A DNA stretch of 44,651 bases from an uncultured Alphaproteobacteria bacterium (GTDB lineage: Bacteria; Pseudomonadota; Alphaproteobacteria; Rhodobacterales; Rhodobacteraceae). The notes under the pieces are model-generated. The model ran no database searches and was not told the DNA's origin. It worked only from the letters and a program-made list of their open reading frames with translations. This document shows, one piece after another, positions 1,546 through 40,840 of the stretch (its first letter is position 1; each line of letters opens with the position of its first letter). Made by a program: the position numbers and the translations under genes. The DNA is taken from NCBI GenBank assembly GCA_902531755.1, contig CACAFI010000012.1, forward strand, positions 1 to 44,651, written 5' to 3'.

Positions 1546-1553
1546 GATTATAT

Positions 1554-3569: not shown

Positions 3570-6500
3570 GTTGATAAAGTTTTTATACTAAGCCTTCGTT
3601 TGAAAAATTTGAATATTTCATCTTTTAATGAAAAAACCGACGTCCTACCAATAACCAGTAAGGCTGGGGTAGCAATTAGCGTAAGGAACGTAGCAAAAGT
3701 CAGCCCTCCAGCAATAGTACTAGACAGATCCACCCACCACTGAGACGAAGGAGCTCCTACAAGCACATCTCTCTCAGAAAACCTTATGGTAAGACTGAAG
3801 ACCATCGGTACGAGGCCTAATATAGTTGTAATAGCTGTAAGAATAACGGGCCTAAACCTTGTAAGTCCTGCTAAGTAAGCAGCCTCCCGGTTAGAATTTC
3901 CCTTTCTTTTATATTCATTAAAGGTGTCGATCAAAACGATATTATTATTCACAACAATACCTGCGAGTGCGATTAGACCAAGCATGGACATAACAACACC
4001 AAAAGGCCTTTCTGTTAAAAAGAGTAATAAGAAGATACCACCGGTTGATAGAATTATCGCGGACATCGTTACAATAGTTTGCCATGCTGAATTAAACTGT
4101 ATCATTAAAACAATTGACATCAACACAAGAGAAAAAATTAGTGATTGCCCAAGAAACGCTTGAGTCTCTTTGATATCTTCATCCTCGCCCGCAAAGCTCA
4201 CATTAACATTTTTTGAAAAATTTACATTCTCTAATTCACTCTTAAGCATTTCAATCAAAAAAGGCGCTCGCATTCCTTCCTTTACATTTGCCTCTATGGA
4301 TCGAAGCCTGTTTCCATCTAAACGAGATATGGTACCTCCCTTTTTTTCGGGGGTGAGTTCAGCAAAGACTGATAATGGAACATATCTGCCGTCTGATGTG
4401 GGAACCCTTAATTCTTGTAATCTGTCTAAATTTCTTTCAGACTTTATATATCTCAAAAATACCTCAAGCTCTTCATCTGTATCGTCCGGCCTGTAATCTG
4501 AAACCTTTACTCCTTTGGTCAGTAACTTTACCATTGTTCCCAAACTAGCAACTGTAACACCATGTCTAGCGGCTATTTCTCTATCGATATTTAAATTCCA
4601 CTCTAAGCCTGGAGACGGTAAGTTATCTGAAATATCGATAAACCCATCTATATTTTTCATTTTCTGTTTAATAACAAATAATGCTTTGTTCAATTGATCG
4701 AAGTCAGTGCCAGTTATTTCAATTCTTACTGGCTTTCCTTGACCTCCTGGACCTTCCTTCTGTGCAACTATATTTATATCTGCGCCTTCCAAAAACTTAA
4801 CACTACCTCTCATGTCTTCCATTAAATCAGCCGCTGTTTCACGCTCATTCCAATCAGAAAAAATAGTTCGCACCGAACCAACTAGATCTTTAGTCCTACC
4901 ATCAGCCCCAGTTTTAGCAAAATTTATATCTACACCATTTAAATTAGAAATAGATGCCTCGGTATCTTTCACTAGAGAATTTTTTTCTGAAGCGGATAAA
5001 TCACCTCTTGAAAGAATTTGGACAACTGCTTGCTCTGGTTCAATATCTGGAAAAAATTGAACCCCTAACTTGGCAGAAAAATATGCTATGTAAGATCCCA
5101 GTATTAATAAACCTACCAAAAATATTGAAAGTATCGGTCGTGTCACCGAGATTTTAAGAATTTTTTTATAAAGTGTCGGAGGCGTTGTTTTAGTTCTTTT
5201 GTCAGTCGAAATTTTTCCAAGCAAGCTTCCTAATATTGGGATGAATATTAAGGCCATTAAAAGAGATGCTGATAAAACAACAATCATTGTTATTGGCAAA
5301 TATTTCATAAACTGACCTACTATTCCAGGCCAGACCAAGAGAGGGAAAAAAACCATCAAAGTAGTCAAAGTAGAGGCTACTATAGGCCACGACATTCTTA
5401 CCGAACCCTCTAAATAGGCGACCCTTCTATCATGACCTAAGGATATTTTTCGATCAGCATACTCTGTAGTAACAATAACTCCATCTACTAGAATACCTGC
5501 TACAAGTATAAGAGAAAATAGGACGATTATATTCATAGTTACCCCAAAATAGCTTAATATTATGAAACCAAGAAGAAAACTGCTTGGAATTGCAAACCCA
5601 ATTAAAAGAGCATTTTTTATTCCCAATGCCAGAACTACTATTACTAAGACAATTACAATTGCAGCAAAAACGTTGTTACCTAAATCATTAAGCAAATTTC
5701 TTACCGATTTAGATTCATCAAATAAATAATCAACATTTATATTCCCTGGAATGTTAGATACTTCCTCAGAAATCACTTTTTTAGAGGCATCAACTACATC
5801 AATTATATTTGAACCCACTCTCTTTTTTATATCTAAAACGACAGCTGGTTTACCGTTAACTCTTGACCAGCTTTTTTTATCTTCGAAAGTTCTTCTTATA
5901 ATTGCAATATCACCAAAATTTATAGTAGTGCCGTCAGCAATTTTTATAGGCATTGAAAAAAGCTCATCTAATGTTTCAACAACACCAGGCACCTTAACAA
6001 CCAATCTACCATTTTCATTTTCGATAGCACCTGCGGTTACCAATTGATTATTAGCTGCCACTAATCCAATTACGTTTTGTGGGTTAATTCCATAAGATTC
6101 TATAGAACTAGCATCAATGAGTATTTCTATGACTTCTTTTCTGTCTCCACCTACCTCTACCTCTAAAACACCCGCTACGCTCTCAACTTTTTCTTTAAGA
6201 TTATTTGCTATATTTATCAAAGATGACTCCGGCACGTTCCCAGACAAAGATACTGACAACACAGGAAAAAGCGCCAAACTTATTTCTGTTACTTTCGGTT
6301 CTTCAGCATTTTTAGGTAAATCCTTTTTTGCATCATCAACGGCTTGCCGGACATCCTCTAGAATAAGGTCGATATCCTCTCCTGCATCAAACTCAACCGT
6401 TATAGATGTGTAACCTTCCGTTGCTGCTGACGTCATTTTTTTTAGTCCTGCAACTGTTTTTAGCTGCTTCTCTAATGGCTTGGTTAACAATTTTTCAGCA

Positions 6501-6676
6501 TCGGAGGGAGATATACCTTCATATGCCACACTGACATATGCAACGGGAATTTCGACATCTGGAGCTGCTTCCTTAGGTATAGAGAAGAAAGCATTGATAC
6601 CTGAAAAGAAGATCAATACTAGAGCTAAAATAACGGCACCGGGTCTTTTAAAACACCCTTCAATTATTGATTTCAT
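3566..6676 (-). CDS. RND-family efflux permease (HAE-type)
   Basis: 1036 residues, the usual length for an AcrB/MexB-like inner-membrane pump with twelve membrane segments and two large periplasmic loops. The protein has an early helix (15-32), then the PDVEIP...SPSDAEKLL porter start, a membrane block at 335-490 and a second block near the C-terminus. In TM4 the usual Asp-Asp pair is D398-G399 (LVDGVIV), and the TM10 lysine region reads VVNNNIVLID, with Asn in place of Lys. These variants are typical of the HAE-2-like branch, so proton coupling may rest on fewer residues. The adaptor gene ends 9 bases upstream. No outer-membrane channel gene is in the window. Substrate cannot be told from sequence. 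Confidence 0.9.
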   Translation of the reverse strand: MKSIIEGCFKRPGAVILALVLIFFSGINAFFSIPKEAAPDVEIPVAYVSVAYEGISPSDAEKLLTKPLEKQLKTVAGLKKMTSAATEGYTSITVEFDAGEDIDLILEDVRQAVDDAKKDLPKNAEEPKVTEISLALFPVLSVSLSGNVPESSLINIANNLKEKVESVAGVLEVEVGGDRKEVIEILIDASSIESYGINPQNVIGLVAANNQLVTAGAIENENGRLVVKVPGVVETLDELFSMPIKIADGTTINFGDIAIIRRTFEDKKSWSRVNGKPAVVLDIKKRVGSNIIDVVDASKKVISEEVSNIPGNINVDYLFDESKSVRNLLNDLGNNVFAAIVIVLVIVVLALGIKNALLIGFAIPSSFLLGFIILSYFGVTMNIIVLFSLILVAGILVDGVIVTTEYADRKISLGHDRRVAYLEGSVRMSWPIVASTLTTLMVFFPLLVWPGIVGQFMKYLPITMIVVLSASLLMALIFIPILGSLLGKISTDKRTKTTPPTLYKKILKISVTRPILSIFLVGLLILGSYIAYFSAKLGVQFFPDIEPEQAVVQILSRGDLSASEKNSLVKDTEASISNLNGVDINFAKTGADGRTKDLVGSVRTIFSDWNERETAADLMEDMRGSVKFLEGADINIVAQKEGPGGQGKPVRIEITGTDFDQLNKALFVIKQKMKNIDGFIDISDNLPSPGLEWNLNIDREIAARHGVTVASLGTMVKLLTKGVKVSDYRPDDTDEELEVFLRYIKSERNLDRLQELRVPTSDGRYVPLSVFAELTPEKKGGTISRLDGNRLRSIEANVKEGMRAPFLIEMLKSELENVNFSKNVNVSFAGEDEDIKETQAFLGQSLIFSLVLMSIVLMIQFNSAWQTIVTMSAIILSTGGIFLLLFLTERPFGVVMSMLGLIALAGIVVNNNIVLIDTFNEYKRKGNSNREAAYLAGLTRFRPVILTAITTILGLVPMVFSLTIRFSERDVLVGAPSSQWWVDLSSTIAGGLTFATFLTLIATPALLVIGRTSVFSLKDEIFKFFKRRLSIKTLST

Positions 6677-6685
6677 ATTATATTC

Positions 6686-7804
6686 TCAATTAATTTTATA
6701 TTCTATCTGGTCTCCAGGACTGACAAAGGCCTGACCATTTGTTAAAACTATTTCATCATTTTGCAAACCAGATACTAATGCGAAATCACCTGAGGTTCTT
6801 ACCAAGAAAACATCATTCTCAAAAACTTTATTGTTTCTAACTGTTTTTACTTTTAAAGACCCGTCTTCCCCAATTGCTAGGTGAGCAGGTGATATTGAAA
6901 AAGCCTGAACTTTCTCCACTAGAATGCCAACCTCGGCACTCATTCCAGCCTTCAAAGACCTATCTATATTAGCTATTTCAATTTCAACGACGAATGTTCG
7001 AGTTGCCTCACTTGCTGACGATGCTATGCGCTTAACCACACCCCTTTTATTTCCAACTCCAGTTACATTGATTACAACTTCATCACTCAATGATATTTTA
7101 GCAACGTCGGTTTGAGCTACCGGTGCAAATAGCAACATTTTTGAAAGGTCGATTATCTTTCCTATATTTTGGTTTTTTTTGACAAATTGACCAGCTTCAA
7201 CATTTAATGACTCCAGCACTCCTCCAATTCCTGCGACAACAGTACTGTTTTGAAGATTGTTGCGTAATGCGGCAAGATCTGCTTTTGCTCGTGTTAAAGC
7301 TGCCTCAGCTCTCACCAACTTCAACTCCGTTGTCATATTTTTTTTCGATAAGCTCTCAGCTATTGAGTGGTTTTTCTTTTCCAATCGCAAAGCTGCCTCT
7401 CCAGCTTCTAGCTGTTCTAGTATGGTTCCCTTATCTATTTCGAGTATCACATCATTTTTTTCAATTAATTGTCCTCGTTGCTTTACTATTTTTTTTACTT
7501 CTCCATCCTTCTTACTAAAGACATCGATTTCATAAACTGGTTTTAGCACACCACTAGCTCTCACAACTTTATAAGTATCGCGGTTTTGCACTTTTTGAGC
7601 TGATACCACAAATACCTTTTCAGTATCATCTTCCTTTACAGGCTCGATTGTTTCTTTTTTTTCAACAAACAAACCAGGAACCATCCATACAGCTATAATT
7701 AAAATTATGAAAAACGCTACTGCTTTTCTAGACGCAAAGATTGATAAGAATCTATCTTTATGCTTAAGCGGTTTGTTAAAATCAATATGGAGTTTGGTAA
7801 CCAT
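6686..7804 (-). CDS. RND efflux periplasmic adaptor (HlyD/MFP family)
   Basis: 372 residues with a short cytoplasmic start, one membrane anchor (about 29-47), then barrel-sandwich halves flanking a coiled-coil hairpin rich in Ala, Leu and Lys (about 130-190), and a beta-barrel/membrane-proximal end. It is anchored by a helix; there is no lipobox. In the family this subunit joins the inner-membrane pump to an outer-membrane channel. The gene starts 3 bases after the aroB stop and ends 9 bases before the RND pump, so it is probably made from the aroK-aroB transcript. Confidence 0.88.
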   Translation of the reverse strand: MVTKLHIDFNKPLKHKDRFLSIFASRKAVAFFIILIIAVWMVPGLFVEKKETIEPVKEDDTEKVFVVSAQKVQNRDTYKVVRASGVLKPVYEIDVFSKKDGEVKKIVKQRGQLIEKNDVILEIDKGTILEQLEAGEAALRLEKKNHSIAESLSKKNMTTELKLVRAEAALTRAKADLAALRNNLQNSTVVAGIGGVLESLNVEAGQFVKKNQNIGKIIDLSKMLLFAPVAQTDVAKISLSDEVVINVTGVGNKRGVVKRIASSASEATRTFVVEIEIANIDRSLKAGMSAEVGILVEKVQAFSISPAHLAIGEDGSLKVKTVRNNKVFENDVFLVRTSGDFALVSGLQNDEIVLTNGQAFVSPGDQIEYKIN

Positions 7805-7807
7805 TCT

Positions 7808-8920
7808 CTAACTTAATTGAAGCTGTAAAAATTTTTCTAATTTTTGAAAAGATACATTTCTTTTAATAAAGCCATTACCTATATCTTTTAATAAAATCAA
7901 GTTAATATTATCACCAACTACTTTTTTGTCTTGTTTCATAAAGCTCAATAGTTTTACTACGTCTATTTTACCATTATGGATCTGAGTAGCTTCTGTAGGT
8001 AATGTCATCATGTTCAAATGGTCTCTTATTTCCTTCAACTCGTGATCACTGATGTAGCCCTTTTCGTTAGAAAATAGAGTGGCAAGCACCATTCCTAGGG
8101 AAACTGCCTCACCGTGGAATAATTTTTCTGAATAGTCAAAATAGCTCTCTAATGCATGCCCAAAGGTATGACCAAAATTTAGGAGTGCTCTATCCCCCTG
8201 CTCTGTTTCATCAATTTCGACAATCTTGCTTTTCAGTTCAAGGGATTTATCAATTATATGCATCAAAATGCTTTTATCTCTTAATAATGTTAGCTTCTGG
8301 TTTTCTATCAAATATTTGTAAAAACCTTTGTCAAAAACAAGTGCCATTTTCAAAACCTCTGCATATCCCGCAAGAAAAACTCTATCTGACAATGTGCTAA
8401 GAAAAGATAAGTCACAAAAAACAACCTTTGGATGGTAAAACGTTCCAATGGAATTTTTTGCTGATCCACTATTAATTGCTGTTTTGCCTCCCACGGAGCT
8501 ATCTACTTGAGATAAAAAAGTAGTCGGGATTTGGATTAAATTTATACCTCTACGAAATAAACTAGCAGCCAGAGACACTAGATCTCCAACCACTCCACCA
8601 CCGAAAGCTAGAATATAGTCTGTCTTATCAAAATTCAGCTTAGTTAACCACTCAAGAATTTTTTTCAAAACTTTCCAGCTCTTCGACGTTTCACCTGGCT
8701 CTATTAAGAGCAAGTAGGGATTTAATGCCAAATCACTTATTTGATCTAGCAAATTTGAATATTGACAACTGTGCACATTTTTATCAGATATAATCGCAAT
8801 TTTCTTATCAGCTAAGATTGACGCAAGATAATCATTATTTTTTTTAAGCAGGTTTTCACCTATCCATATATCATAACTTGTTTTTCGTGATAAAATGCCT
8901 ATGGATTTTTTTCTAATCAT
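7808..8920 (-). CDS. aroB: 3-dehydroquinate synthase
   Basis: 370 residues, full length. The protein shows the NAD-binding segment FGGGVVGDL, the IPTTFLSQVDSSVGGKTAIN active-site stretch, the metal ligands in YAEVLKMA and in FGHTFGHALE, and the downstream FHGEAVSLGM histidine. It converts DAHP to 3-dehydroquinate, step two of the shikimate pathway, in the cytoplasm. Its ATG overlaps the aroK stop as ATGA, which implies translational coupling. The efflux adaptor follows within 3 bases. Confidence 0.96.
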   Translation of the reverse strand: MIRKKSIGILSRKTSYDIWIGENLLKKNNDYLASILADKKIAIISDKNVHSCQYSNLLDQISDLALNPYLLLIEPGETSKSWKVLKKILEWLTKLNFDKTDYILAFGGGVVGDLVSLAASLFRRGINLIQIPTTFLSQVDSSVGGKTAINSGSAKNSIGTFYHPKVVFCDLSFLSTLSDRVFLAGYAEVLKMALVFDKGFYKYLIENQKLTLLRDKSILMHIIDKSLELKSKIVEIDETEQGDRALLNFGHTFGHALESYFDYSEKLFHGEAVSLGMVLATLFSNEKGYISDHELKEIRDHLNMMTLPTEATQIHNGKIDVVKLLSFMKQDKKVVGDNINLILLKDIGNGFIKRNVSFQKLEKFLQLQLS

Positions 8921-9456
8921 GGTGTGTTAATTACCTTATTCAAAGATAAATTTTCTATTATAGCATCGACGGTTATTTCTAAGTTGGGATTCTCATTCAA
9001 AATATGAATATCTGCTTGACGATAGAACTTTATTCTTTTTTTATTCTTCTCGATAAGAGTATCTACTATATTCTTGTCCGCTAAAAGAGGGCGTTTTTCC
9101 TGATTGAGAATACGCCTCGATATAATATTTATATTACATTTTATCCAGATAGAACAAGATCTATATTTAATTAAATTCCTTGTTTTAGCGGATAATATAG
9201 ATCCTCCACCCGTTGAAATAATATGTGCAGTATCATTTAACACTTTTCCCACAACTTTTTCTTCTACTTGCCTAAAGTATTTCTCACCGGAGTCATTGAA
9301 TATTTGAAATATTTTCTTTCCAACTTCCTCCTCAATTATTTTATCAGTATCTGACAGTGGAACACCAATCCTTTCAGAAAGCACTTCACCAACAGCACTC
9401 TTTCCGCTCCCCATCAAACCTATTAAAACTATCGATTTAGATAAAATTTGTTTCAT
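8917..9456 (-). CDS. aroK: shikimate kinase
   Basis: 179 residues. It has the Walker A loop GLMGSGKS near the N-terminus, the shikimate-binding DTD-like segment (LSDTDKIIEE), the E...FR motif (GEKYFRQVE), the STGGGS loop and the RPLL lid motif. It phosphorylates shikimate with ATP, step five of aromatic amino-acid synthesis. It overlaps aroB by four bases and is first in a probable aroK-aroB-adaptor-pump transcript. The 121 bases upstream form a divergent promoter region with the small membrane protein gene at 9578. Confidence 0.95.
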   Translation of the reverse strand: MKQILSKSIVLIGLMGSGKSAVGEVLSERIGVPLSDTDKIIEEEVGKKIFQIFNDSGEKYFRQVEEKVVGKVLNDTAHIISTGGGSILSAKTRNLIKYRSCSIWIKCNINIISRRILNQEKRPLLADKNIVDTLIEKNKKRIKFYRQADIHILNENPNLEITVDAIIENLSLNKVINTP

Positions 9457-9577
9457 TTGATAAATTCATTTACAATGTTAACTCTGAGATTAACGCTTTT
9501 ATATAGCAATAAAAAAGCAAATTGGTGCAAAAACTTAAATATTGCAAAAAAATTCAACTTTAGCGAGGCAAATAAAG

Positions 9578-9712
9578 TTGCTTAAATATTATATCACAGG
9601 TTCAACAGCATTAATTATTACATGTTTATTTTTATACCTTTTGGTCGAACAAGATCCTCCAGAGGGTGAAATAATTATTGAAGTCAATACCAATGATCCA
9701 TCAAAAAATTAG
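9578..9712 (+). CDS. small single-span membrane protein, TTG start (44 residues)
   Basis: This short frame reads MLKYYITGSTALIITCLFLY, then LLVEQDPPEGEIIIEV and a polar end. That is a short basic start, a membrane helix of about 20 residues and an acidic, probably periplasmic tail. The TTG at 9578 has GAGG at 9565-9568 with 9 bases of spacing, which decides the start; an in-frame TTG at 9542 lacks a ribosome site. Its end overlaps the start of the next gene (9678) by 35 bases, so the two are probably translated together. I do not recognise a family. The case for coding rests on the ribosome site, the membrane-protein layout and the overlap with the next gene. Confidence 0.6.
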   Translation: MLKYYITGSTALIITCLFLYLLVEQDPPEGEIIIEVNTNDPSKN

Positions 9713-11261
9713 GCTTTTTTTTTTAGTTTTTATAGCCTTTGTAGTTATTTCTCCTGTGGCATATTCAGATGCAGGAGAGTTTCAAAATGCTATAAAGCAA
9801 TTATCTGTAATAGAAACAGAATCTTTCATATCTAGCCCATCAAAGAAACTATTGGAGAAAAAAAATATCGAAGAAACTCTTTTGGGGGAACTCAATATAA
9901 ATGGAATAGGGTTAATTTCAATTGAAACTACTAAGTTGCCAACTGATTTATGGAGTAACTCCAACGAAAAAGTACTTTCAGAAAAGCTGAATAATATGGC
10001 TAAACGGTCTTTGGCGAGTACTAAAAAAATTTTTAAAAGGCTACTCATTGTCGATGCGAAGCCTCCGCTAAATTCAATAGGCATGAAAAACATGGGATAT
10101 TTATTCCTATTGTCACGTGTTGACCAATTAATCAATTTGGGTGCGATTGATGAAGCAGAAGAAATCCTCAACTATATTGAAGAACCTTCTGTTGAATTCA
10201 TGAAGAGAAAAATTGAAGTCGCATCACTAAACGGTAGACTTTCAAAAACGTGTGATTTGGCAAATAAATACCCAAACTTTGATGGAATGCTTCAGTTTAA
10301 AATAATATGCTTAGTCAGAAAAAATGACTGGCAAGCAGCCGCTTTAGCTTTTACCGTAGGTTCATCTTTGAAGCAATTCGATGAAAAAGAAAAACAATTA
10401 TTATTAAATTATTTAGATCCCGATATTGTGTCTTATAATCCTAATGATTTTCAGATAAATGATATAAGCCCAACAAATTTTTATCTAATGCATGGCAAGA
10501 AAGAATTAATCCCACCAGATGTAATACCGAACAAGTACGCGTATGTATTCAGCCGACCAGGCATGTCTCCCAACATGCGAATTAAGCATATGGAACAGTT
10601 AGCATCGGACTACATAGTTAATGCAAACACTTTATTTAATCTATACAGATCGAGTGAATATGAAGATAGGGAGGAAGCCAATATCACAAAAAAGACTGTA
10701 ATTGAATTAGATCAATCTTTTAATAGCAACAGTGAACGAAAAAAGCTTTTAGCTCTGAAAAAAGCTACGAAAGTATTTCAAAAAAAAAAATTACTTACGC
10801 AACTTTCCAATGAATATATCGATGAATTAAAAAGGTTGGATTATTCTGATGATGCGAGACTGAATGATCTGGCGATTGCTCTACTAAGTCTAACTGATGG
10901 CGTAAGCAATAAGCTTTTTATGTTTGACCCAACTAATCCCGATATTAAATGCTTGATAGATATCAAAAAAAAGGTGTTTATCAATAATGAAGCAGATACT
11001 GCCCTATGCCAATTAGTAAAACAATTAAATGTAGAAACAATTAAAAAAAGTTTCCCTAGAAGTACGAATTATGATGATCAAATTGAAAAGGGTTTGATTT
11101 TATTAGAAAGTTTAAATTTATTAGAAAATGGTTTCTCAACTGAGTTTAAAGAACTGAAGCTAAGCTTAAGTATGTTAACAAAAATTGGGCTTATTGATTT
11201 AGTTAATGAAATTTCAATAGAGTTAATGGTCTTTAATGCGTTAAAAAAAATGGTTTCGTAG
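9678..11261 (+). CDS. exported helical protein of unknown function (527 residues)
   Basis: The N-terminus has a signal peptide: basic start, hydrophobic run LFFLVFIAFVVI, and a likely cleavage after AYSDA near residue 32. The rest looks mostly helical and polar, with LNGR...CDLANKYP and FKIICLVRKNDWQAAALAF stretches that resemble solenoid or TPR-like repeats; I see no catalytic motif. TTG 9678 follows an AGAGGG ribosome site; ATG 9693 is an alternative but lies farther from it. The gene lies between the small membrane protein and xerD, and xerD starts 3 bases after its stop. I recall uncharacterised exported proteins beside xerD and aroK in Rhodobacterales. A role in envelope or division is a guess. 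Confidence 0.85.
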   Translation: MKSIPMIHQKIRLFFLVFIAFVVISPVAYSDAGEFQNAIKQLSVIETESFISSPSKKLLEKKNIEETLLGELNINGIGLISIETTKLPTDLWSNSNEKVLSEKLNNMAKRSLASTKKIFKRLLIVDAKPPLNSIGMKNMGYLFLLSRVDQLINLGAIDEAEEILNYIEEPSVEFMKRKIEVASLNGRLSKTCDLANKYPNFDGMLQFKIICLVRKNDWQAAALAFTVGSSLKQFDEKEKQLLLNYLDPDIVSYNPNDFQINDISPTNFYLMHGKKELIPPDVIPNKYAYVFSRPGMSPNMRIKHMEQLASDYIVNANTLFNLYRSSEYEDREEANITKKTVIELDQSFNSNSERKKLLALKKATKVFQKKKLLTQLSNEYIDELKRLDYSDDARLNDLAIALLSLTDGVSNKLFMFDPTNPDIKCLIDIKKKVFINNEADTALCQLVKQLNVETIKKSFPRSTNYDDQIEKGLILLESLNLLENGFSTEFKELKLSLSMLTKIGLIDLVNEISIELMVFNALKKMVS

Positions 11262-11264
11262 AAA

Positions 11265-12194
11265 ATGAAAGATTTGGATAATTTATCATCTGATTTCCTA
11301 TTAAGTCTTGTTACTGAAAAAAATATGAGTCTGAATACAGCGTCCTCATACAAAGCAGACTTAAAGATTTTTTTTAAATTTTTGAACCAGCAAAACTTAA
11401 CCGTTGAAACGATTAGAAAAAACGAAATTAGCAAATTCTTTCAAAGTCAAAGGGAAAGGGGTTTTTCAGACAATACTGTTTCCCGAAGATTATCTACCAT
11501 GAAGCAGTTTTTTAAATTTTTAATATTGGAAGGCCTGTTGGATCGAAATCCGTGCGAGGATATAAAAAACTTCAAAAAAACAAAAAAATTGCCTGGTTTC
11601 TTATCGGAAGAAGAAGTAGTAAGAATATTGAATTCAGCTAGCACTGTAGGTAAAAATAACGTTGAGAGAGCTAGAAATAAAGCTCTAATTGAGATACTGT
11701 ACGCTAGTGGAATGAGAGTAAGTGAACTCGTTTCATTACGAAAATCGCTTTTTAATGGAACGCCAGAATTAATTTTGATAAAAGGTAAAGGAAACAAAGA
11801 ACGCATGGTTCCAATCTCGAAAATAGCATTATCCGCGATCAAAAAATATTTGGCTGAGTTAAAAAAGCACAGTATAGAACTTTATAAAAGTGATTTTTTA
11901 TTTCCTTCAAGATCAAAAAATGGCTACTTGAACAGAGAGAGATTTTTCTTGATCATTAAAGAAGTTGCTAACTCTGCTGGATTGAACGCACAGTATGTTT
12001 CACCACATAAAATCCGACATGCGTTTGCCTCTCATTTATTGTCGAATGGTGCTGACTTGAGAGTAATACAAACCTTGCTTGGTCATAAGAACCTAAGCAC
12101 TACTGAGATTTATACGCATATTTTAAGTGAAAAAATTATAAAGAGTGTTCAAAAGAATCACCCTTTTTCTAAAAAAGATTTTAAAAACTTGTAA
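11265..12194 (+). CDS. xerD: site-specific tyrosine recombinase XerD (or XerC)
   Basis: 309 residues with an N-terminal SAM-like core-binding domain (about 5-95) and a catalytic domain. The complete tyrosine-recombinase set is visible: R151 (GMRVSEL), K175 (KGKGNKER), H248 and R251 (SPHKIRHAF), H274 (LGHKNL) and the nucleophile Y283 (TEIYTH). Length and motifs fit the Xer proteins that resolve chromosome dimers at dif with FtsK, not a phage integrase. No mobile element surrounds it. Xer C versus D is not certain; the XerD label comes from the usual position near aroK in related genomes. Confidence 0.9.
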   Translation: MKDLDNLSSDFLLSLVTEKNMSLNTASSYKADLKIFFKFLNQQNLTVETIRKNEISKFFQSQRERGFSDNTVSRRLSTMKQFFKFLILEGLLDRNPCEDIKNFKKTKKLPGFLSEEEVVRILNSASTVGKNNVERARNKALIEILYASGMRVSELVSLRKSLFNGTPELILIKGKGNKERMVPISKIALSAIKKYLAELKKHSIELYKSDFLFPSRSKNGYLNRERFFLIIKEVANSAGLNAQYVSPHKIRHAFASHLLSNGADLRVIQTLLGHKNLSTTEIYTHILSEKIIKSVQKNHPFSKKDFKNL

Positions 12195-33766: not shown

Positions 33767-35146
33767 TTAATTATTATTTAATTCCAGAAAATTATTGTTG
33801 ACCATTTGATCCATAAAACTATCAGAAGCTCCTTGGTTACTCTTATAAAACTTTTTTATATCTTTTATATGACTTTCATCAAAGTTCAAACGTTTCTTAT
33901 CGTAATAAGCTGAAACCAGAGCGGATGATAACTCATTTTGTCCACTAATCTTTTTTAAAATACCAACATCTAGCGCTTCCAATGCTGGATATTCGATGCC
34001 CCAAATACTTGGGCCCACTATTACAGGTTTTTGCAAAGCAAAAGGCTCAATTATGTTATGGGATCCTTCATTGTTTAAAGAGTCACCCATAAAAACTAGA
34101 TCAGACATTGCCATATAAAAATTCAATTCTCCAAGGCTATCGCCCCACAACAGACTAAAATTATCTAAGTCTTTAAATTTTTCTTCATTACAAATTTTAA
34201 AATTTGTTGAGATCTCCACCATTTTACTTCGTGGTTTAACTTTTATTGAACTGCCTTCAAACAAAATCTTATATTTGCTAAAGTCATTAGGGTGCCTGGG
34301 AACTAGTATAAAAAAAATATCCTTATGCTTTTTATGTAGATCGCCAATTATTTCACTTATTATTTCAAATTCCTGTTTCCCAATACTGGCAAAACAAATC
34401 GTAAAATATTTGTTAAAAGCTATTTTTTTTAATTTCAAAGCTGCATTAATTTGGTCTGTAGGAACCTCTTGTTCAAATCTTGTATCTCCCATAATTAAAA
34501 CTTTTTTAGCCCCAAAGTACTCAAATCTTTTCTTATGTCTTTCAGATTTAGATAAAATTAAATCGAATTTTTCAATCAAACTAGCTTTCAGAAAAGGGAA
34601 TTTTTTATCTCTAATGAACCCTTTTTCAGGATATTGAGCCTGGGCAAATATTAGAGGAATTTGTTCCTTTTGAGTAGTCATGATCATTACTGGCCAAAGG
34701 TCACACTCAAGGATTATACAGCACCTCGGCTTGAAATTTTTAAGAAATCTTTTAAACATTAAGGTTATTTCAAGTGGAGCGTAAACAACTAACACTTTAC
34801 CTTCCATTATTTCTTCACGATATTCCTGCTGGGCAGCACTTTTGCCAGATAAAGTCAGCGTGGTAATTAATAGTTTTTCTCCATTTAGAAGAAGTTTTTT
34901 AAAAATTGGGCGTGCTGCTCTAAATTCTCCTAAAGATACTGCGTGGCACCAACAGGCTCCTTTAAATTTTTTTTTATAAAAACTTAATCTCTCTGTAAGA
35001 TTTGAAGCATATCCTGGTTCTTTTACAGAGCGATAGAAGAAATACATTAATGCAATTGGCAGAAATAAATACCAAAGAAACTGATAAAGATTGAAAACAA
35101 TTGAGACAAAAATTTTTTTAAAATTAAATTTCAATCGACACCCCAA
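33767..35146 (-). CDS. waaA: 3-deoxy-D-manno-octulosonic acid (Kdo) transferase
   Basis: Up to 459 residues; GT-B fold of the WaaA family. An N-terminal membrane anchor (about 12-38) precedes NLTERLSFY and the acceptor-site motif HAVSLGEFRAARP, in which E74 matches the catalytic base of E. coli WaaA. The C-terminal half has the CMP-Kdo side, including MGDSLNNEGSHNIIEP. It links Kdo to lipid A precursor at the inner membrane. The listed start is TTG 35146; TTG 35134 with GGGG 6 bases before it is an alternative. It diverges from neuB, which places it at the head of a sugar-modification region. Confidence 0.93.
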   Translation of the reverse strand: MGCRLKFNFKKIFVSIVFNLYQFLWYLFLPIALMYFFYRSVKEPGYASNLTERLSFYKKKFKGACWCHAVSLGEFRAARPIFKKLLLNGEKLLITTLTLSGKSAAQQEYREEIMEGKVLVVYAPLEITLMFKRFLKNFKPRCCIILECDLWPVMIMTTQKEQIPLIFAQAQYPEKGFIRDKKFPFLKASLIEKFDLILSKSERHKKRFEYFGAKKVLIMGDTRFEQEVPTDQINAALKLKKIAFNKYFTICFASIGKQEFEIISEIIGDLHKKHKDIFFILVPRHPNDFSKYKILFEGSSIKVKPRSKMVEISTNFKICNEEKFKDLDNFSLLWGDSLGELNFYMAMSDLVFMGDSLNNEGSHNIIEPFALQKPVIVGPSIWGIEYPALEALDVGILKKISGQNELSSALVSAYYDKKRLNFDESHIKDIKKFYKSNQGASDSFMDQMVNNNFLELNNN

Positions 35147-35235: not shown

Positions 35236-36264
35236 TTGCAAATTAAAAACAGAACTATCAGCTCTAAAGAAGCCCCTCTCATCATTGCCGAACTGGGTAT
35301 AAATCATGGTGGCGATTTTTTGGTTGCAGAACAAATGGTTAAAAGAGCTGCTGAAAGAGGCTGTGAAGTAATTAAGCACCAAACACACTTTCTTGATGAT
35401 GAGATGACACCTGATGCAAAACATATCATGCCTCCTAACGCTGACGCCTCAATATGGGATGTAATGGAAAAATGTTCCTTAACAAAAGATGAAGAAATTA
35501 GCTTAAAGAGAATAGTTGAGGACTTAGGAATGATTTTTATTTCCACCCCTTTCTCAAGATCTGCAGCAGATTTTTTAAATGATATAAACGTACCTGCTTT
35601 TAAGATTGGCTCTGGAGAGTGTGACAATCTTCTTCTGCTGGAGTATATAGCAAATTTTGGCAAGCCCATTATTCTTTCCACAGGTATGCAAGATATAAAG
35701 TCGGTGCAAAAACCTGTAGAAATTTTTGAGAAATACGGTATCGAATACGCGCTTTTAGAATGCACAAACATATATCCTTGCCCACCAGAAGATATAGCAC
35801 TTGGTAGCTTAGCACAGCTATCCTATGAGTTTCCTAATGCCGAGATTGGCTTTTCAGATCATTCTATTGGACCAACAATGGCTTTAGCAGCTGTTGCATT
35901 GGGTGCAACAATTGTTGAAAAGCACTTTACTGACACCAAAGAACGAGAAGGGCCTGACATTTCCTGTTCAATGGATCCAGATGAACTCGAACATCTTATA
36001 AAAAAAAGCAAGGAAATAGCCTACTCAAGAAATAGAAAGAAGTTCATAGCCGATATTGAAAAAGATGTTTATAAGTTTGCGCGATCTTCAATTGTTACCG
36101 ATAAAGATCTAAAAAAAGGTGATACTATTGATAGACAAAATATCTGGGCTAGAAGACCGGGAAACGGAGAAATACCTGCTTTCGAATTTGAAAAAGTTTT
36201 AGGAAAAACTCTAAAACGAAACCTTGCTAAAAATACTCAAATAAAATGGTCAGATTTAAAATAA
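35236..36264 (+). CDS. neuB: N-acetylneuraminate synthase family (NeuB/LegI-type)
   Basis: 342 residues. The TIM-barrel synthase domain starts IIAELGINHGGDF, with KHQTHF, PAFKIGSGE and DHSIGPTMALAA downstream, and the C-terminal SAF domain (about 280-340) has RSSIVTDKDLKKGD. It condenses phosphoenolpyruvate with an N-acetylmannosamine-type sugar to make a nine-carbon nonulosonic acid. The start is TTG 35236; the ribosome site is weak. neuC follows by 10 bases. Sialic versus legionaminic acid cannot be told from the motifs seen. Confidence 0.92.
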   Translation: MQIKNRTISSKEAPLIIAELGINHGGDFLVAEQMVKRAAERGCEVIKHQTHFLDDEMTPDAKHIMPPNADASIWDVMEKCSLTKDEEISLKRIVEDLGMIFISTPFSRSAADFLNDINVPAFKIGSGECDNLLLLEYIANFGKPIILSTGMQDIKSVQKPVEIFEKYGIEYALLECTNIYPCPPEDIALGSLAQLSYEFPNAEIGFSDHSIGPTMALAAVALGATIVEKHFTDTKEREGPDISCSMDPDELEHLIKKSKEIAYSRNRKKFIADIEKDVYKFARSSIVTDKDLKKGDTIDRQNIWARRPGNGEIPAFEFEKVLGKTLKRNLAKNTQIKWSDLK

Positions 36265-36274
36265 TGAGATTGAT

Positions 36275-37399
36275 GTGAAAAAACTACTATTCATAACAGG
36301 CACAAGAGCTGACTTCGGTAAACTTGAACCACTGGCATCAAGTGCAAAATCAGCAGGATTTAAAATTTATTTTTTTGTTACTGGCATGCACCTTTTAGAA
36401 AAGTACGGACTTACTAGCATAGAAGTTTCAAGGATGAAAAACATTACAAGGTTTGAATTTATCAATCAAATGGAGGGCGATCCACAAGATAGGATCCTTT
36501 CTCGAACTATCACGGGAATTTCCGAATATGTCGGTAGATTAAAACCAGACCTCGTTTTGATTCATGGAGATAGAATAGAGGCAGTTGCCGCCTCACTTGT
36601 TTGCGCGACAAAGAACATAAGAAGCGCTCATATTGAAGGAGGAGAAGTATCAGGAACCATAGATGAAGTTTATCGACACTGTAATACCAAGTTATGTACG
36701 GTCCATTTTGTAAGTTCAAACTCGGCAAAAAGGCGAGTTACAAAATTAGGGGAACATCCCGATAGAGTTTTTGTGCTGGGCTCTCCAGAACTAGATGCAC
36801 ATAAAGCAAGAAATTCAATTCCTCTAAATGAAGTTCTGAGTTATTACGATATTGAGTGGGATGACTATGGGATTTTTATTTTTCACTCTGTCACTTCTGA
36901 ATTAGAGAGTTTAAAGAAAGAGATCCAAATTTGTTGCGATTCCTTAAAAAGAATTAAAAAGAACTTTGTAGTTATTTCTCCAAATAATGATCCAGGATGT
37001 GAGATAATTTTCAAGACAATCGGGAAGCTGCCCAGATCTCATTTCAAACAAATTCCTTCAATGAGATTTTCATATTTCTCAACGTTACTGAAACACTCTC
37101 AAGTTATTGTAGGAAATAGTTCTGCTGGTGTTCGAGAAGCCCCGTTTCTTGGGATCTCTTCTATAAATATAGGATCTCGCCAATTTAAAAGAGGTGGGGC
37201 AAAGAGTATAAAAAACTTTGATGTTTTTAAAAATAAGCAACTTGACAGGCTAGTTGAGAAACAATGGGGGAAGCGCTTTCGGGGTGATAATAGTTTTGGA
37301 ACGGGGCAGTCTGTAAAAAAATTTATAAAGATTTTAAATGATAAAAAAATTTGGAACCTACATTTGCAGAAAACATTTTTTGAGACCTCTAATCATTAA
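36275..37399 (+). CDS. neuC: UDP-N-acetylglucosamine 2-epimerase (hydrolysing), NeuC/LegG-type
   Basis: 374 residues from a GTG start. It shows TGTRADFGKLEPL at the N-terminus, IHGDRIEAVAAS, HIEGGEVSGTIDE and GNSSAGVREAP, all typical of the hydrolysing 2-epimerases. The product is N-acetylmannosamine (or a 2,4-diacetamido analogue in LegG), the substrate for NeuB directly upstream. Its end overlaps the convergent GMC-type gene by 11 bases. Confidence 0.9.
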   Translation: MKKLLFITGTRADFGKLEPLASSAKSAGFKIYFFVTGMHLLEKYGLTSIEVSRMKNITRFEFINQMEGDPQDRILSRTITGISEYVGRLKPDLVLIHGDRIEAVAASLVCATKNIRSAHIEGGEVSGTIDEVYRHCNTKLCTVHFVSSNSAKRRVTKLGEHPDRVFVLGSPELDAHKARNSIPLNEVLSYYDIEWDDYGIFIFHSVTSELESLKKEIQICCDSLKRIKKNFVVISPNNDPGCEIIFKTIGKLPRSHFKQIPSMRFSYFSTLLKHSQVIVGNSSAGVREAPFLGISSINIGSRQFKRGGAKSIKNFDVFKNKQLDRLVEKQWGKRFRGDNSFGTGQSVKKFIKILNDKKIWNLHLQKTFFETSNH

Positions 37400-38933
37400 G
37401 GAACCCTTGTTTTAAACAAAAGATTTTACTGGCTGCTAAAGTAGGCAAATATTGATGTGTTGAAACAAAGTCGGGAAATATCGATGCATCACATACATAG
37501 AGATTGTTTATTCCAAATACTTTGAAATTTACATCAACTACTCCACTACTTTTATCTTTGGCCATTCTATTAGTTCCTATAAGATGATATCCGGAATATG
37601 TATCCGATTTTATGTTTTTCTCTATATTATGATTCAAAAAATCTTTTGTACTTTTGGAAAAACCTGCTTTTTTTAGAAGATTTACTGCACTTATATAAGC
37701 TTTTTGAGTTAAAACTCTATCATATTTGCTAGATAAATAGTTTGGATCGATTTGTATTTTGTTTTTATTGTCGAGAGAAATTGAACCCTCAGATTTCGGA
37801 AAAACTTGAAAGCATCCAATTGACGCTCGCTGGGCTTTTTGAAATTTAATGCCTTTGGATGATAACAAACTTCGTTCTTGTGTAAAATGCACCAAATGAA
37901 ATCTTACCAAATCATTTATATCACTTTTTTTATTAAAACTTGATTTATTCCAGGCAAGGGAAGTTCCTGGACTTTTAAAGATTGAGTTTTTTGACATAAT
38001 ATACTTCGTCAATTCTATCAATAATTTCAAACCACGTGTTTTTTGATTAAGCGTATCGAATCCAATACAATCAAATTCAATCCTGAAATTTGCATGATCT
38101 TTTAAATGTTTTCCCACATGATTTTGCTGGATTTTCAAAGGGACGCCGGCTTTATGAACGTCTTTAGGGTCTCCGATACCTGATCGCATTAGAATTAGTG
38201 GTGAAAAAATTGTGCCTGCTGAAAGGACAATCTTTTGTGCATTTATGATAATTTTTGACTTAGTTAGTAAATTTTCGCACTCAACTCCCGAGGCATTATT
38301 ATCTCTAAAGAGGAGTTTTATGGCACGCGTATTTGCTAGTTTCATTATATTTTTGTGTTCCGCATTCTCCTTGAAGTCGTTTGAAAAATTATATCTTTTT
38401 GACCTAAGAATGTTGAGATGGATTTTTGCCCAACCTTCTAAAAAATTATCCAAATCATCAACTTCAGGAACAGAACTCTTGTTAAGAGTCTTACAAAAAA
38501 TATTGGTTAGTTCATCTGAATAGCCGAAATCCCTTTTGTATGAAAAATCTGATTTGCAATAGATTTGATCTTTAACTCTCTGAAACATATGTTTTTGCCA
38601 AAACGAAAAAACCTCTTCAAACTTTTTCTCGAAACCTAAGTATGCGACATTTCCATTTATTAAGCTTGAACCTCCAAAACCAGTCCCCTGAAGAATAGGC
38701 AATTCTCGATTCCCTAAACCTTGTTGTTTCTCAGAGATAAAGCTCAAACAGTGTTTATCATTTTGAAGTAATTTCCCTGATAATAAAGGTATCTTATTTA
38801 AATAGCTTTTACCTTCAGAGTATCCCTGTTCTATCAAACATACTTTTAAGCCAGATCTGCTTGCATTTTTTGCAATTTCTAAACCGCAAGCCCCAGCACC
38901 AATAATCGCTAAGTCATATCCTTGGTGAGACAT
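37389..38933 (-). CDS. GMC-family FAD oxidoreductase, nonulosonate-cluster linked
   Basis: 514 residues. The FAD-binding start is LAIIGAGACGLEIA (9-22) with CLIEQG at the end of the second strand, and TGFGGSSLINGNVAY is the GMC signature 1-like region. The C-terminal catalytic segment has H450 (GYHLIGTNRM) and H493 (STHQYLPT). GMC enzymes oxidise an alcohol carbon of sugars or other alcohols. Its start overlaps the NeuA-type gene by 20 bases, so they are co-translated. I infer that it makes a carbonyl on a sugar for the aminotransferase two genes upstream. The substrate is unproved. Confidence 0.85.
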   Translation of the reverse strand: MSHQGYDLAIIGAGACGLEIAKNASRSGLKVCLIEQGYSEGKSYLNKIPLLSGKLLQNDKHCLSFISEKQQGLGNRELPILQGTGFGGSSLINGNVAYLGFEKKFEEVFSFWQKHMFQRVKDQIYCKSDFSYKRDFGYSDELTNIFCKTLNKSSVPEVDDLDNFLEGWAKIHLNILRSKRYNFSNDFKENAEHKNIMKLANTRAIKLLFRDNNASGVECENLLTKSKIIINAQKIVLSAGTIFSPLILMRSGIGDPKDVHKAGVPLKIQQNHVGKHLKDHANFRIEFDCIGFDTLNQKTRGLKLLIELTKYIMSKNSIFKSPGTSLAWNKSSFNKKSDINDLVRFHLVHFTQERSLLSSKGIKFQKAQRASIGCFQVFPKSEGSISLDNKNKIQIDPNYLSSKYDRVLTQKAYISAVNLLKKAGFSKSTKDFLNHNIEKNIKSDTYSGYHLIGTNRMAKDKSSGVVDVNFKVFGINNLYVCDASIFPDFVSTHQYLPTLAASKIFCLKQGFLND

Positions 38934-39729
38934 ACTCTATACCCAAATCTTGAAGCTCTTTGATCAAAACTAATGCATCTTCAAATTCCTCTTCAGTGTC
39001 GATATCCATTGAGCGATCAATCGAAAGAGGAAAAGCCAAAGTCTTGGCTTTAGGCATGAAACCCTTTTTTTTCAGCATAGATACTGAGCCTAGATATAAA
39101 CTTCCATCTACGAAAGCTGTATTACTATTTTCTTGGATATCTTTGTGTGTAAGCAATTTCTTACCTATGTAGCCCGCTAAAAAATCTGAATTCACTTCGC
39201 TGGAGTCAATTATCTCATATATATCTTTTATTTTACTGTATTTTTTATTTACGGATACTACGGAGAGATTATTGCCCAAGTTAGCAATTTGTTTGCAAAA
39301 ACTGACTAAATCACTTTTCAATCTAATAGGTGATGTTGGTTGCAATAATATGAAGCTTCCCTCTAGATAATCATTCAAACTAATCACGCCTTCATAAGCT
39401 AGCTTGTAAATAGAATCGATTATAACGTCAGATAGAATTGCATTGTCGTCAGAAAGATCTGGACTTCTTTGAACTGTAAGAATATTAGGCGAATATTTCT
39501 TTTTTACTAAATCTATAATCTGACCATCATCGCTAGAACAAATAACTGAAATGTTTCTTAAACCACTGAGCTCTTGCTTCAAAAACAAGCCAGCTGCCAA
39601 ACTCCACTCAAATAAAGGAAACCCATTAAAGTCCTTAGAATTCTTATAACGGAGCCTTTTTGAGTTTTTTCGAGCAGGAATAACGATAATTAAATTTTCA
39701 TTAAGAGCACTCATTAATATTACTGGCAA
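38914..39729 (-). CDS. neuA: acylneuraminate cytidylyltransferase (CMP-nonulosonate synthetase, NeuA-like)
   Basis: 271 residues. The nucleotide-binding start is VIPARKNSKRLRYKN, and LLQPTSPIR is the classic NeuA/PseF/LegF motif, distinct from KdsB. It activates a nonulosonic acid with CTP. The start may be Met6 (ATG 39714, giving MSALNEN). The frame overlaps the aminotransferase end by up to 29 bases and the GMC gene by 20. Together with neuB-neuC on the other strand it completes synthesis and activation of the sugar; no sialyltransferase is in the window. Confidence 0.9.
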   Translation of the reverse strand: MPVILMSALNENLIIVIPARKNSKRLRYKNSKDFNGFPLFEWSLAAGLFLKQELSGLRNISVICSSDDGQIIDLVKKKYSPNILTVQRSPDLSDDNAILSDVIIDSIYKLAYEGVISLNDYLEGSFILLQPTSPIRLKSDLVSFCKQIANLGNNLSVVSVNKKYSKIKDIYEIIDSSEVNSDFLAGYIGKKLLTHKDIQENSNTAFVDGSLYLGSVSMLKKKGFMPKAKTLAFPLSIDRSMDIDTEEEFEDALVLIKELQDLGIEYVSPRI

Positions 39730-40840
39730 TGTTTTTATAATCTATGATTGGCCTGGATACTAAAATTGGAATAGCAATACACTTGAGTAACCGATTATAG
39801 CAATTGGTTACCTCTTTATTTCTAATTTTTTTATCAACATGTTCCCAAAAATATGCACAATGCCAGTTAAATGCGTCTGGTAAATTTTTTGTACCAAACC
39901 CAGCTTTGTTCAACAAACCGATAACTTTATTACGTAATTTCTTATCCTCTATAGAAACCACGAAAGTATCATAATTAGGCTCATTTCCTGAATTCACGTG
40001 TCTAAATTTTATTTGTTTGTTCTTAATATATTTTTCAAGAGTGATGTATCTCCTTTGAGACTCTCTTAAAATACGTGGAAACTTCTCTAATTGAACCTTA
40101 CCAAAAGCTCCACTAATTTCTGTCATCCTGTAATTAAAACCGATTGATCCTGCACGATCCAAGCCTCTTGGTAAATTGGGAATATTTTTATGACCGTGAT
40201 CGTGATACATTCTCGCATTTTTTCCATCACTTTTTCTTTTGGAAAACAAAGCTCCACCTTCACCAGTTGTAATCATTTTGCCAAAGTCAAAACTAAATAC
40301 CCCAAATTCACTTAATCCTCCAACATATTTGCCTTGAACTTTCGCTCCAATTGCTTCGCAGGCATCCTCAATTACAGGTATCTTATTTCTCTTACCAATT
40401 CTGTTGATTGTTATCATATCTGAAGGTACACCCAGCATATGAACTGGTATAATAGCTTTAGTTTTTTTTGTAATTAAGCTCTCCAGGTTTTTAGGGTTCA
40501 TATTTAAGGTGTCATCCACATCAGTAAAAATGACGGTGGCCCCTGTATCTACAATCGCTTCTACTGTTGCAATGAAATTGAAAGACTGTGTTATAACCTG
40601 GTCACCCCTGCCTATACCTAACGCTTTTAAAGCCACTTTAATTGCCGCGGTACCAGATGAAACGCACAATGTATCGGCCACCTGGGGGCTAAAAACGGTT
40701 TTCAATTTTTGCTCAAACTCTCTTACATGATAATGTTTTCTTTTCTTATCGAAACCGTGGGCGAAAAACACTTTTCCCTCATCGAAGATGCGGGATATTG
40801 CTTTCTTCTCTTTTTCGTCAATAACCTCAAATCCAGGCAT
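39701..40840 (-). CDS. DegT/DnrJ/EryC1/StrS sugar aminotransferase, KdnA-like
   Basis: 379 residues. PLP motifs are SSGTAAIKVAL (61-71), EDACEAIGA (158-166) and the Schiff-base lysine K188 in FSFDFGKMITTGEGG. The MPGFE start, the YHDHGHKNIP region and a late NWHCAYFW stretch recall KdnA, the aminotransferase that makes 8-amino-8-deoxy-Kdo in Shewanella; the resemblance is from memory. A simple LegC/PseC 4-aminotransferase is the alternative. An AGGAG site precedes ATG 40840. It is first of three overlapping genes with the CMP-sugar synthetase and the GMC flavoprotein. Confidence 0.88.
   Translation of the reverse strand: MPGFEVIDEKEKKAISRIFDEGKVFFAHGFDKKRKHYHVREFEQKLKTVFSPQVADTLCVSSGTAAIKVALKALGIGRGDQVITQSFNFIATVEAIVDTGATVIFTDVDDTLNMNPKNLESLITKKTKAIIPVHMLGVPSDMITINRIGKRNKIPVIEDACEAIGAKVQGKYVGGLSEFGVFSFDFGKMITTGEGGALFSKRKSDGKNARMYHDHGHKNIPNLPRGLDRAGSIGFNYRMTEISGAFGKVQLEKFPRILRESQRRYITLEKYIKNKQIKFRHVNSGNEPNYDTFVVSIEDKKLRNKVIGLLNKAGFGTKNLPDAFNWHCAYFWEHVDKKIRNKEVTNCYNRLLKCIAIPILVSRPIIDYKNIASNINECS

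What the first reader, a model, noticed from the sequence alone, without database searches (positions are those of the whole stretch)
37389..40840. Possible oxidise-then-transaminate route to an amino-modified nonulosonic acid
Three overlapping minus-strand genes encode a KdnA-like aminotransferase, a NeuA-type CMP-sugar synthetase and a GMC flavin oxidoreductase, opposite neuB-neuC. In Shewanella, KdnB oxidises the terminal alcohol of Kdo and KdnA aminates it. Here the oxidase is a GMC flavoprotein and the activated sugar is of the sialic-acid type. By analogy, the GMC enzyme could oxidise C9 of Neu5Ac or a related sugar and the aminotransferase add nitrogen, giving a 9-amino nonulosonate. 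I do not know of this gene set being described. The shared overlaps (up to 29 and 20 bases) argue for one pathway.
Basis: partly seen in the sequence, partly recalled or inferred. Interest (0 to 1): 0.75.

Follow-up and report, generated by a model that had tools for sequence, protein, structure and literature searches.

The report
Genes for a likely amino-sialic-acid
A conserved gene set in marine Rhodobacteraceae probably converts the end alcohol of a sialic-acid-type sugar into an amine and attaches it to the cell surface, which would be a bacterial sugar not yet described.

Summary
The three minus-strand genes are real and overlap as described. Its order holds in 27 of 27 genome-contig loci as far as contigs reach. 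The aminotransferase groups with KdnA, away from PseC, ArnB and RffA representatives. In genomes G030 and G219 (100% complete by estimate) the unit's synthetase is the only one found besides a KdsB-like one, while neuB and neuC are present (control 109). This favours the NeuB product over Kdo as starting sugar. Other Rhodobacteraceae carry neuBC and related GT30 with a different synthetase cassette. Best reading: GMC oxidises C9 of a NeuB-made nonulosonic acid, the aminotransferase aminates it, the synthetase activates it, GT30 transfers it, probably to LPS. Families and gene order are shown; substrate, position, product and acceptor are inferred. An isolate of Planktomarina temperata (IMCC1909) carries the unit, so it is testable. 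A Kdo-less lipid A was considered; the gaps do not support it.

The parts
39701..40840 (-). KdnA-type DegT/DnrJ/EryC1/StrS PLP aminotransferase (AT); invariant Lys188 in the place of the PLP lysine (assignment from family knowledge), DHGH and NWH motifs
38914..39729 (-). NeuA-type CMP-nonulosonate synthetase (CMPS)
37389..38933 (-). GMC flavin oxidoreductase; FAD-motif glycines 12, 14, 17 near the N-terminus, His450/His493 pair
36275..37399 (+). NeuC, UDP-GlcNAc 2-epimerase (hydrolysing type)
   Evidence: TIGR03568 339 bits, cut-off 236
35236..36264 (+). NeuB, nonulosonate synthase
   Evidence: TIGR03569 350 bits (below its cut-off of 400), PseI model 237 bits
33767..35146 (-). GT30 (WaaA family) glycosyltransferase, fourth member of the conserved AT-CMPS-GMC-GT30 unit

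Best explanation
A tailoring and transfer unit for an amino-modified nonulosonic acid. NeuC and NeuB make a nine-carbon 2-keto-3-deoxy acid (probably Neu5Ac). The GMC flavoprotein oxidises its terminal C9 alcohol to the aldehyde, the KdnA-type aminotransferase converts the aldehyde to a primary amine, the NeuA-type synthetase makes the CMP sugar, and the GT30 enzyme transfers it, most likely to LPS lipid A or core. Shown: presence, families, conserved order, co-occurrence with neuBC, KdnA kinship, and no other nonulosonate CMP-synthetase found in two genomes of 100% estimated completeness. Inferred: substrate, position C9, order of steps, product, acceptor.
For: Gene order of the unit kept in 27 of 27 loci as far as contigs reach. 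All 22 GMC-positive genomes found have neuB: 19 of the 22 genomes of the window's genus are GMC-positive, each with neuB on the same contig, plus G030, G219, G256; background: 40 of 194 other genomes of the order have a close neuB. In G030 and G219 PF02348 finds only a KdsB-like protein, the unit's CMPS and a GlmU-sized protein; the same model detects 8 of 8 CMPS of the alternative cassette, so another would probably have been seen. KdsA is present in both, so Kdo has its own genes. The unit's GT30 forms one clade (99/95) inside the 100/100 clade shared with GT30 from neuBC regions of other Rhodobacteraceae. AT is closest to KdnA, which aminates the terminal carbon of a 3-deoxy-ulosonic acid (function from the PDB title and recall). 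CMPS keeps the meningococcal enzyme's Q104, T106, Y179, D209, D211 in 16 of 16 rows and has Asp in place of Asn175, whose backbone forms the O9 pocket (PMC2901514 section 6), in 16 of 16. A flavin dehydrogenase plus aminotransferase converting a sugar primary alcohol to an amine is known in GenQ/GenB1 (PMC4039129, passages).
Against: No chemistry is known. The only characterised close relative of the AT acts on Kdo, and the only donors known to me for GT30 enzymes are CMP-Kdo and CMP-Kdo8N (recalled). In the GT30 tree E. coli WaaA, a Kdo transferase, lies on the same side as the unit's GT30 (100/100, midpoint root), so the donor cannot be read from the tree. The N-acetyl pocket F192/F193 of NmCNS is not kept; R165 is lost in 5 of 8 rows of the window's genus (alignment uncertain there) and K142 is Glu in 8 of 16. 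In the window's own genome a second CMPS of another type exists (C42), so uniqueness rests on G030 and G219. Structural comparison does not single out KdnA: Z 34.4 against 35.2 for the top row, a tie. The Asn175Asp comparison covered two NeuA rows (Asn) and ten CMPS rows of other types (Val, Ala or Thr) only.
Confidence: 0.57

Rival explanations
1. Kdo8N route: the GMC enzyme replaces KdnB and oxidises C8 of Kdo; the AT makes 8-amino-8-deoxy-Kdo; the unit's CMPS activates it and GT30 adds it to lipid A. neuBC is a neighbour only.
For: AT is nearest to KdnA and GT30 is of the WaaA family, with E. coli WaaA on its side of the tree. KdsA is present in G030, G219 and G256. In these three neuBC is not next to the unit.
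Against: CMPS is NeuA-type, not KdsB-type (99 against 23 bits). The NeuB product would have no synthetase in G030 and G219. The unit's GT30 shares a 100/100 clade with GT30 of other neuBC regions. neuB is present in 22 of 22 unit-bearing genomes searched.
Confidence: 0.18
2. Amino-nonulosonate with nitrogen at another carbon (C4, C7 or C8): GMC oxidises a secondary alcohol to a ketone that the AT aminates.
For: Most DegT aminotransferases act on keto-sugars (family knowledge); pyranose and glucose dehydrogenases are among the GMC matches.
Against: KdnA, the nearest characterised AT, acts on a terminal aldehyde (recalled); the best GMC matches by profile are alcohol oxidases and a choline dehydrogenase; the change at the O9 pocket position.
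Confidence: 0.15
3. The AT works in a legionaminic or pseudaminic route (LegC or PseC role) and the GMC gene is unrelated.
For: AT scores 202 and 184 bits to the LegC and PseC models.
Against: Less than half of their cut-offs (420, 423.5); no 4,6-dehydratase among the ten proteins of 31.7-42.3 kb scanned; AT-CMPS-GMC order kept wherever contigs allow; on the KdnA side of the tree, where PseC was represented by one annotated row and LegC by none.
Confidence: 0.04
4. The sugar replaces Kdo altogether (Kdo-less lipid A) in the window's lineage.
For: No KdsA, KdsB or second GT30 found in G196 (90% complete) while LpxC is present.
Against: MnhE, the gene next to kdsA in the four kdsA regions read, is missing in nine of nine genomes of the genus without a full-length kdsA, so a missing block explains it; KdsA is over its cut-off in 13 of 22 genomes of the genus.
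Confidence: 0.03

Closest known systems
KdnA/KdnB pathway to 8-amino-3,8-dideoxy-D-manno-octulosonate (Kdo8N), Shewanella
   Same: KdnA-type aminotransferase (34.9-41.5% identity to 5k8b residues 1-335 in 8 cluster rows); oxidise-then-aminate logic on an ulosonic acid (recalled); WaaA-family transferase
   Different: Oxidase is a GMC flavoprotein, not the iron-dependent KdnB; synthetase is NeuA-type, not KdsB; co-occurs with neuBC; extra GT30 paralogue
GenQ/GenB1 and Neo11 (gentamicin, neomycin; PMC4039129, passages)
   Same: Flavin dehydrogenase plus PLP aminotransferase converting a sugar CH2OH to CH2NH2
   Different: Antibiotic pathways, not a CMP-sugar; homology of GenQ to this GMC was not tested
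Neu5Ac pathway NeuC-NeuB-NeuA
   Same: NeuC over its cut-off, NeuB nearest the NeuB_NnaB model, NeuA-type synthetase
   Different: Oxidase and aminotransferase added; GT30 instead of a known sialyltransferase; synthetase altered at the O9 and N-acetyl pocket positions
Rhodobacteraceae neuB-neuC-GT30'-GT30 regions with a CMPS/SDR/Gfo-Idh cassette (seen here)
   Same: NeuB of the same kind (57-61% identity), NeuC, and GT30 of one clade
   Different: Other CMPS type and other oxidoreductases; no AT-GMC pair seen in the 12 regions read

Membership tests
KdnA (Kdo8N transaminase) | Nearest sequence kin among DegT aminotransferases | tested here: met
   Profile 278 bits against 208 for the next PDB sequence; clade 93/89 with KdnA in a 22-row tree
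KdnA (Kdo8N transaminase) | DHGH and NWH motifs seen in KdnA 5k8b | tested here: met
   8 of 8 cluster ATs and KdnA; 0 of 12 other full-length ATs; 7b0m was truncated and says nothing for NWH
KdnA (Kdo8N transaminase) | Gene pair with the iron-type dehydrogenase KdnB | tested here: not met
   No iron alcohol dehydrogenase among the ten proteins of 31.7-42.3 kb scanned; GMC stands in that place. The rest of the genome was not searched for one
KdnA (Kdo8N transaminase) | Activity on 8-oxo-Kdo | not testable with these tools
   needs enzyme assay
LegC / PseC / WecE / ArnB | Score over the curated cut-off | tested here: not met
   202/420, 184/423.5, 138/434.9 (PRK11706: 166/375), 147.5/631 bits
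CMP-nonulosonate synthetase (NeuA type) | Gln104, Tyr179, Asp209, Asp211 of NmCNS | tested here: met
   16 of 16 rows
CMP-nonulosonate synthetase (NeuA type) | N-acetyl pocket Phe192/Phe193 and Arg165 for the carboxylate | tested here: inconclusive
   F192 is Met, Ile or Phe, F193 kept in 0 of 16, R165 kept in 11 of 16; the region aligns poorly in the window's genus
KdsB (CMP-Kdo synthetase) | Score over a KdsB model's cut-off | tested here: not met
   KdsB-type models 20.9 and 25.9 bits against cut-offs 281 and 193
GMC oxidoreductase | FAD motif and catalytic His pair | tested here: met
   G12, G14, G17, H450, H493 invariant in 17; both His align with His of 8rpf
Choline dehydrogenase (BetA) | Score over the betA cut-off | tested here: not met
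   TIGR01810 111 against 732 bits
GT30 WaaA (Kdo transferase) | Glycos_transf_N domain | tested here: met
   PF04413 138 bits
GT30 WaaA (Kdo transferase) | Orthology to the housekeeping, lpxK-linked WaaA of the same family of bacteria | tested here: inconclusive
   On the other side of a 100/100 branch from the lpxK-linked copy of G030, but that row has a very long branch, and E. coli WaaA falls on the unit's side; all five WaaA models score below their cut-offs

The most novel reading that the evidence does not exclude
A GT30 branch in marine Rhodobacteraceae uses CMP-9-amino-nonulosonate instead of CMP-Kdo and puts an amine-bearing (zwitterionic) sialic acid into the inner LPS, made by a GMC oxidase and KdnA-type aminotransferase pair acting on free nonulosonic acid; natural 9-amino sialic acid and GT30-catalysed sialyl transfer would both be new to me.
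Probability: 0.3. Interest if true: 0.82.

Novelty: new variant of a known kind. Interest (0 to 1): 0.6.

Why it matters
It predicts a new class of surface sugar, a nonulosonic acid with an amine at its end, with named genes and a biochemical logic that can be assayed. The unit occurs in at least four genera of the family and in an isolate of Planktomarina temperata, IMCC1909 (locus L145), of the abundant RCA group (PMC10675870, passages). It also suggests that GT30 enzymes, known to me for Kdo, have a branch that travels with nonulosonate genes, which would widen the donor range of a central LPS enzyme family.

Tried and rejected
Kdo-less lipid A: suggested by missing kdsA, kdsB and second GT30 in G196; rejected because MnhE, beside kdsA in the four kdsA regions read, is missing in nine of nine genomes of the genus without a full-length kdsA (G000, G196, G201, G202, G209, G212, G216; G198 and G206 hold fragments). 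The one genome of the genus with kdsA in that search, G203, has it; G030, with kdsA, has no match, so MnhE is a marker within the genus only. A joint loss of the block in G196 is not excluded.

Structure: the AT model (pLDDT 69) matches the DegT enzymes about equally (KdnA Z 34.4, rmsd 3.6, 346 aligned; top row 3dr4 Z 35.2, rmsd 3.8, 344 aligned), so it does not discriminate. The GMC model is poor (pLDDT 58) and was not used for function.

Mobile records: no close GMC in plasmids (best listed 27.6% identity; all 973 records under 60%) or phages (best 25.4%); in viral contigs the AT relatives were at most 39% identical over their best segment.

Literature: nine searches listed no paper, by title or start of abstract, on this gene set or on a natural 9-amino nonulosonate; four of them listed only 20 of 128, 121, 32 and 1,429 papers. 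One search lists PMC3013563 on synthetic sialic acid analogues with 18 uses of '9-amino-9-deoxy', so the compound class is known by synthesis. Passages were seen of PMC4039129, PMC6357163, PMC9631793 and PMC10675870, and passages plus sections 5 and 6 of PMC2901514; the rest as listings. The library lacks most subscription papers; one search listed no KdnA/KdnB enzyme paper, so that chemistry is recalled apart from the PDB titles.

Dropped rows: the AT tree used 8 of 17 aligned cluster ATs and 12 of 60 listed plasmid hits (1,002 records matched); the GT30 tree left out the cut copy in L213. No signal-peptide program was run on GMC.
Full report
WHAT IS THERE. The finding's three minus-strand genes are confirmed: AT 39701-40840, CMPS 38914-39729, GMC 37389-38933, with overlaps of 29 and 20 bases; GMC and neuC overlap tail to tail by 11 bases. 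Pfam and NCBIfam place them as DegT aminotransferase, CTP_transf_3 and GMC oxidoreductase, with NeuB, NeuC (TIGR03568 over its cut-off) and, just beyond, a GT30/WaaA-family transferase at 33767-35146. The window lies in a 1.52 Mb, 64.5% complete assembly.

A CONSERVED FOUR-GENE UNIT. A search with the GMC protein over 196 genomes of the order found one close relative outside the window's genome, G030 at 42% identity, plus four distant GMC proteins (27-30% identity). Over 148 nearer relatives (E up to 1e-45) it found 21 positives: 19 of 22 genomes of the window's genus, plus G219 and G256. In G030, G219 and G256 the order is AT-CMPS-GMC-GT30 without neuBC in between; neuB and neuC lie elsewhere, with neuC next to a second GT30 (GT30'). 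In G030 all of these are on one 101 kb contig. A scan of genome contigs (84,980 species by its description) gave 27 loci; it works with exact short peptide patterns, so more distant members may have been missed. In 27 of 27 the order is kept as far as the contig reaches; AT is seen in 25, CMPS in 26, GT30 in 25, every absence is at a contig end, and in L128 the GT30 is split into two frames. In 18 loci, which by identity belong to the window's genus, neuC and neuB follow GMC, and GT30 comes after them in the 17 not cut there; in 8 of the 9 others GT30 follows GMC directly and the ninth is cut. Several of these loci are from the same genomes as the G handles.

THE AMINOTRANSFERASE IS OF THE KdnA TYPE. 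It reaches less than half of the cut-offs of the LegC, PseC, WecE (TIGR02379) and ArnB models. A profile of 17 cluster ATs scores KdnA 5k8b at 278 bits, the next PDB sequence at 208. In a 22-row tree the 8 cluster rows join KdnA (93/89), with an AT from a Rhizobium plasmid, itself beside a GMC gene, as next neighbour (96/94, long branch); rows annotated PseC, ArnB and RffA are on the other side. DHGH and NWH motifs occur in KdnA and 8 of 8 cluster rows and in none of 12 other full-length rows. Structure comparison is a tie and adds nothing. No LegC sequence was available for the tree.

THE SYNTHETASE IS NeuA-TYPE. Profile scores: 99 bits to 6ifd, 80 to 1eyr, 23 to KdsB. Against the meningococcal enzyme, Q104, T106, G176, Y179, D209 and D211 are kept in 16 of 16 rows, and N175 is Asp in 16 of 16. 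In that enzyme the Asn175 backbone forms the base of the pocket for O9 of Neu5Ac, and Tyr179 is near O7/O9 (PMC2901514 section 6). A fixed acidic residue at that place would suit a C9 amine; this is suggestive only. The two NeuA rows compared have Asn; ten CMPS rows of other types have Val, Ala or Thr. Against a plain NeuA role: the N-acetyl pocket (section 5) and K142 vary, and R165 is lost in 5 of 8 rows of the window's genus.

WHICH SUGAR. All 22 unit-bearing genomes searched have neuB, against 40 of 194 other genomes of the order with a close neuB. KdsA is over its cut-off in G030, G219 and G256, so Kdo is probably made there. In G030 and G219 PF02348 finds only a KdsB-like protein, the unit's CMPS and a GlmU-sized protein; as a control, PF02348 detects 8 of 8 CMPS of the alternative cassette. 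Hence the NeuB product has no other visible activating enzyme in those genomes than the unit's CMPS. In G256 two further matches (open frames of 383 and 199 aa) were not identified. The window's own genome has another CMPS of a different type on contig C42, so the argument rests on G030 and G219.

THE WIDER LOCUS. Twelve of the 40 neuB regions were fetched, 18 kb each. GT30 of the unit's kind is seen in 10 of 12, GT30' in 7 of 12. A CMPS of a different type is seen in 8 of 12, in most of these beside an SDR or a Gfo/Idh gene (identified by profile in one locus, L216, and by eye in the others; the CMPS by Pfam in all 8). The unit's GT30 forms one clade (99/95) inside a 100/100 clade with these GT30s, apart from GT30'. 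E. coli WaaA falls on the same side, and the lpxK-linked copy of G030, a very long branch, with GT30', so the tree does not tell the donor. AT-CMPS-GMC looks like an alternative tailoring cassette on a shared neuBC-GT30 background. Sialic acid in LPS of this family has a precedent: Rhodobacter capsulatus (PMC9631793, passage).

MECHANISM. The GMC protein of the window begins at its FAD motif and keeps the FAD glycines and the two active-site histidines, so it is probably a working cytosolic enzyme (no signal-peptide program was run). Flavin dehydrogenase plus PLP aminotransferase turning a sugar CH2OH into CH2NH2 is described for GenQ and GenB1 (PMC4039129, passages). KdnA does the amination on Kdo (PDB title; chemistry recalled), and Kdo8N is found in Shewanella LPS (PMC6357163, passages). 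By joining these, the unit most likely makes a C9-amino nonulosonate, activates it and transfers it through GT30.

WHAT FAILED. I considered that the sugar replaces Kdo, because G196 has LpxC but no KdsA, KdsB or second GT30. The gene beside kdsA is missing too in nine of nine genomes of the genus without a full-length kdsA, so a gap is the simple explanation.

NOVELTY. Listings from nine literature searches showed no paper with this gene set; lists were capped and the library is open-access only. New variant of a known kind: a known chemical logic (KdnA/KdnB) with another oxidase and another sugar class. After rechecking, the E. coli WaaA placement moved the odds slightly from the best reading to the Kdo8N rival (0.58 to 0.57, 0.17 to 0.18).

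Noticed in passing
L223 (G000:C42) 2699-7624; L221 (G207:C21) 1473-11893: A second ulosonic-acid-like locus in the window's genus: DAHP-synthase-family protein, shikimate-dehydrogenase-like protein, Gfo/Idh, GT2, CMP-sugar synthetase, and in L221 a PMT-like protein, a GT2 with a GtrA/DPMS domain and a GT30. The synthase plus AroE-like pair beside a CMP-synthetase is odd and unexplained.
   Followed up: partly
L317 (Rhizobium sp. CCGE532 plasmid) 6955-10083: A GMC gene divergent from the AT that is the next neighbour of the KdnA-plus-cluster clade, beside polysaccharide and NRPS/PKS genes; perhaps another oxidise-then-aminate pair.
   Followed up: partly
L209-L220: Rhodobacteraceae regions with neuB, neuC, GT30' and GT30 and a CMPS/SDR/Gfo-Idh cassette; why two GT30 paralogues travel with neuBC is unexplained.
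   Followed up: partly
L128 6656-8039: The unit's GT30 is split into two reading frames in AG-892-M03: a frameshift or a sequencing error.
   Followed up: no
L147: Contig labelled Flavobacteriales carries the unit with its CMPS nearly identical to that of L146 (Rhodobacterales); probably a binning error.
   Followed up: no
L008, L009: In G030 the unit lies on a 101 kb contig with ParA/ParB-like and replication-like genes and large RTX-type repeat proteins, read by eye; plasmid-like.
   Followed up: no
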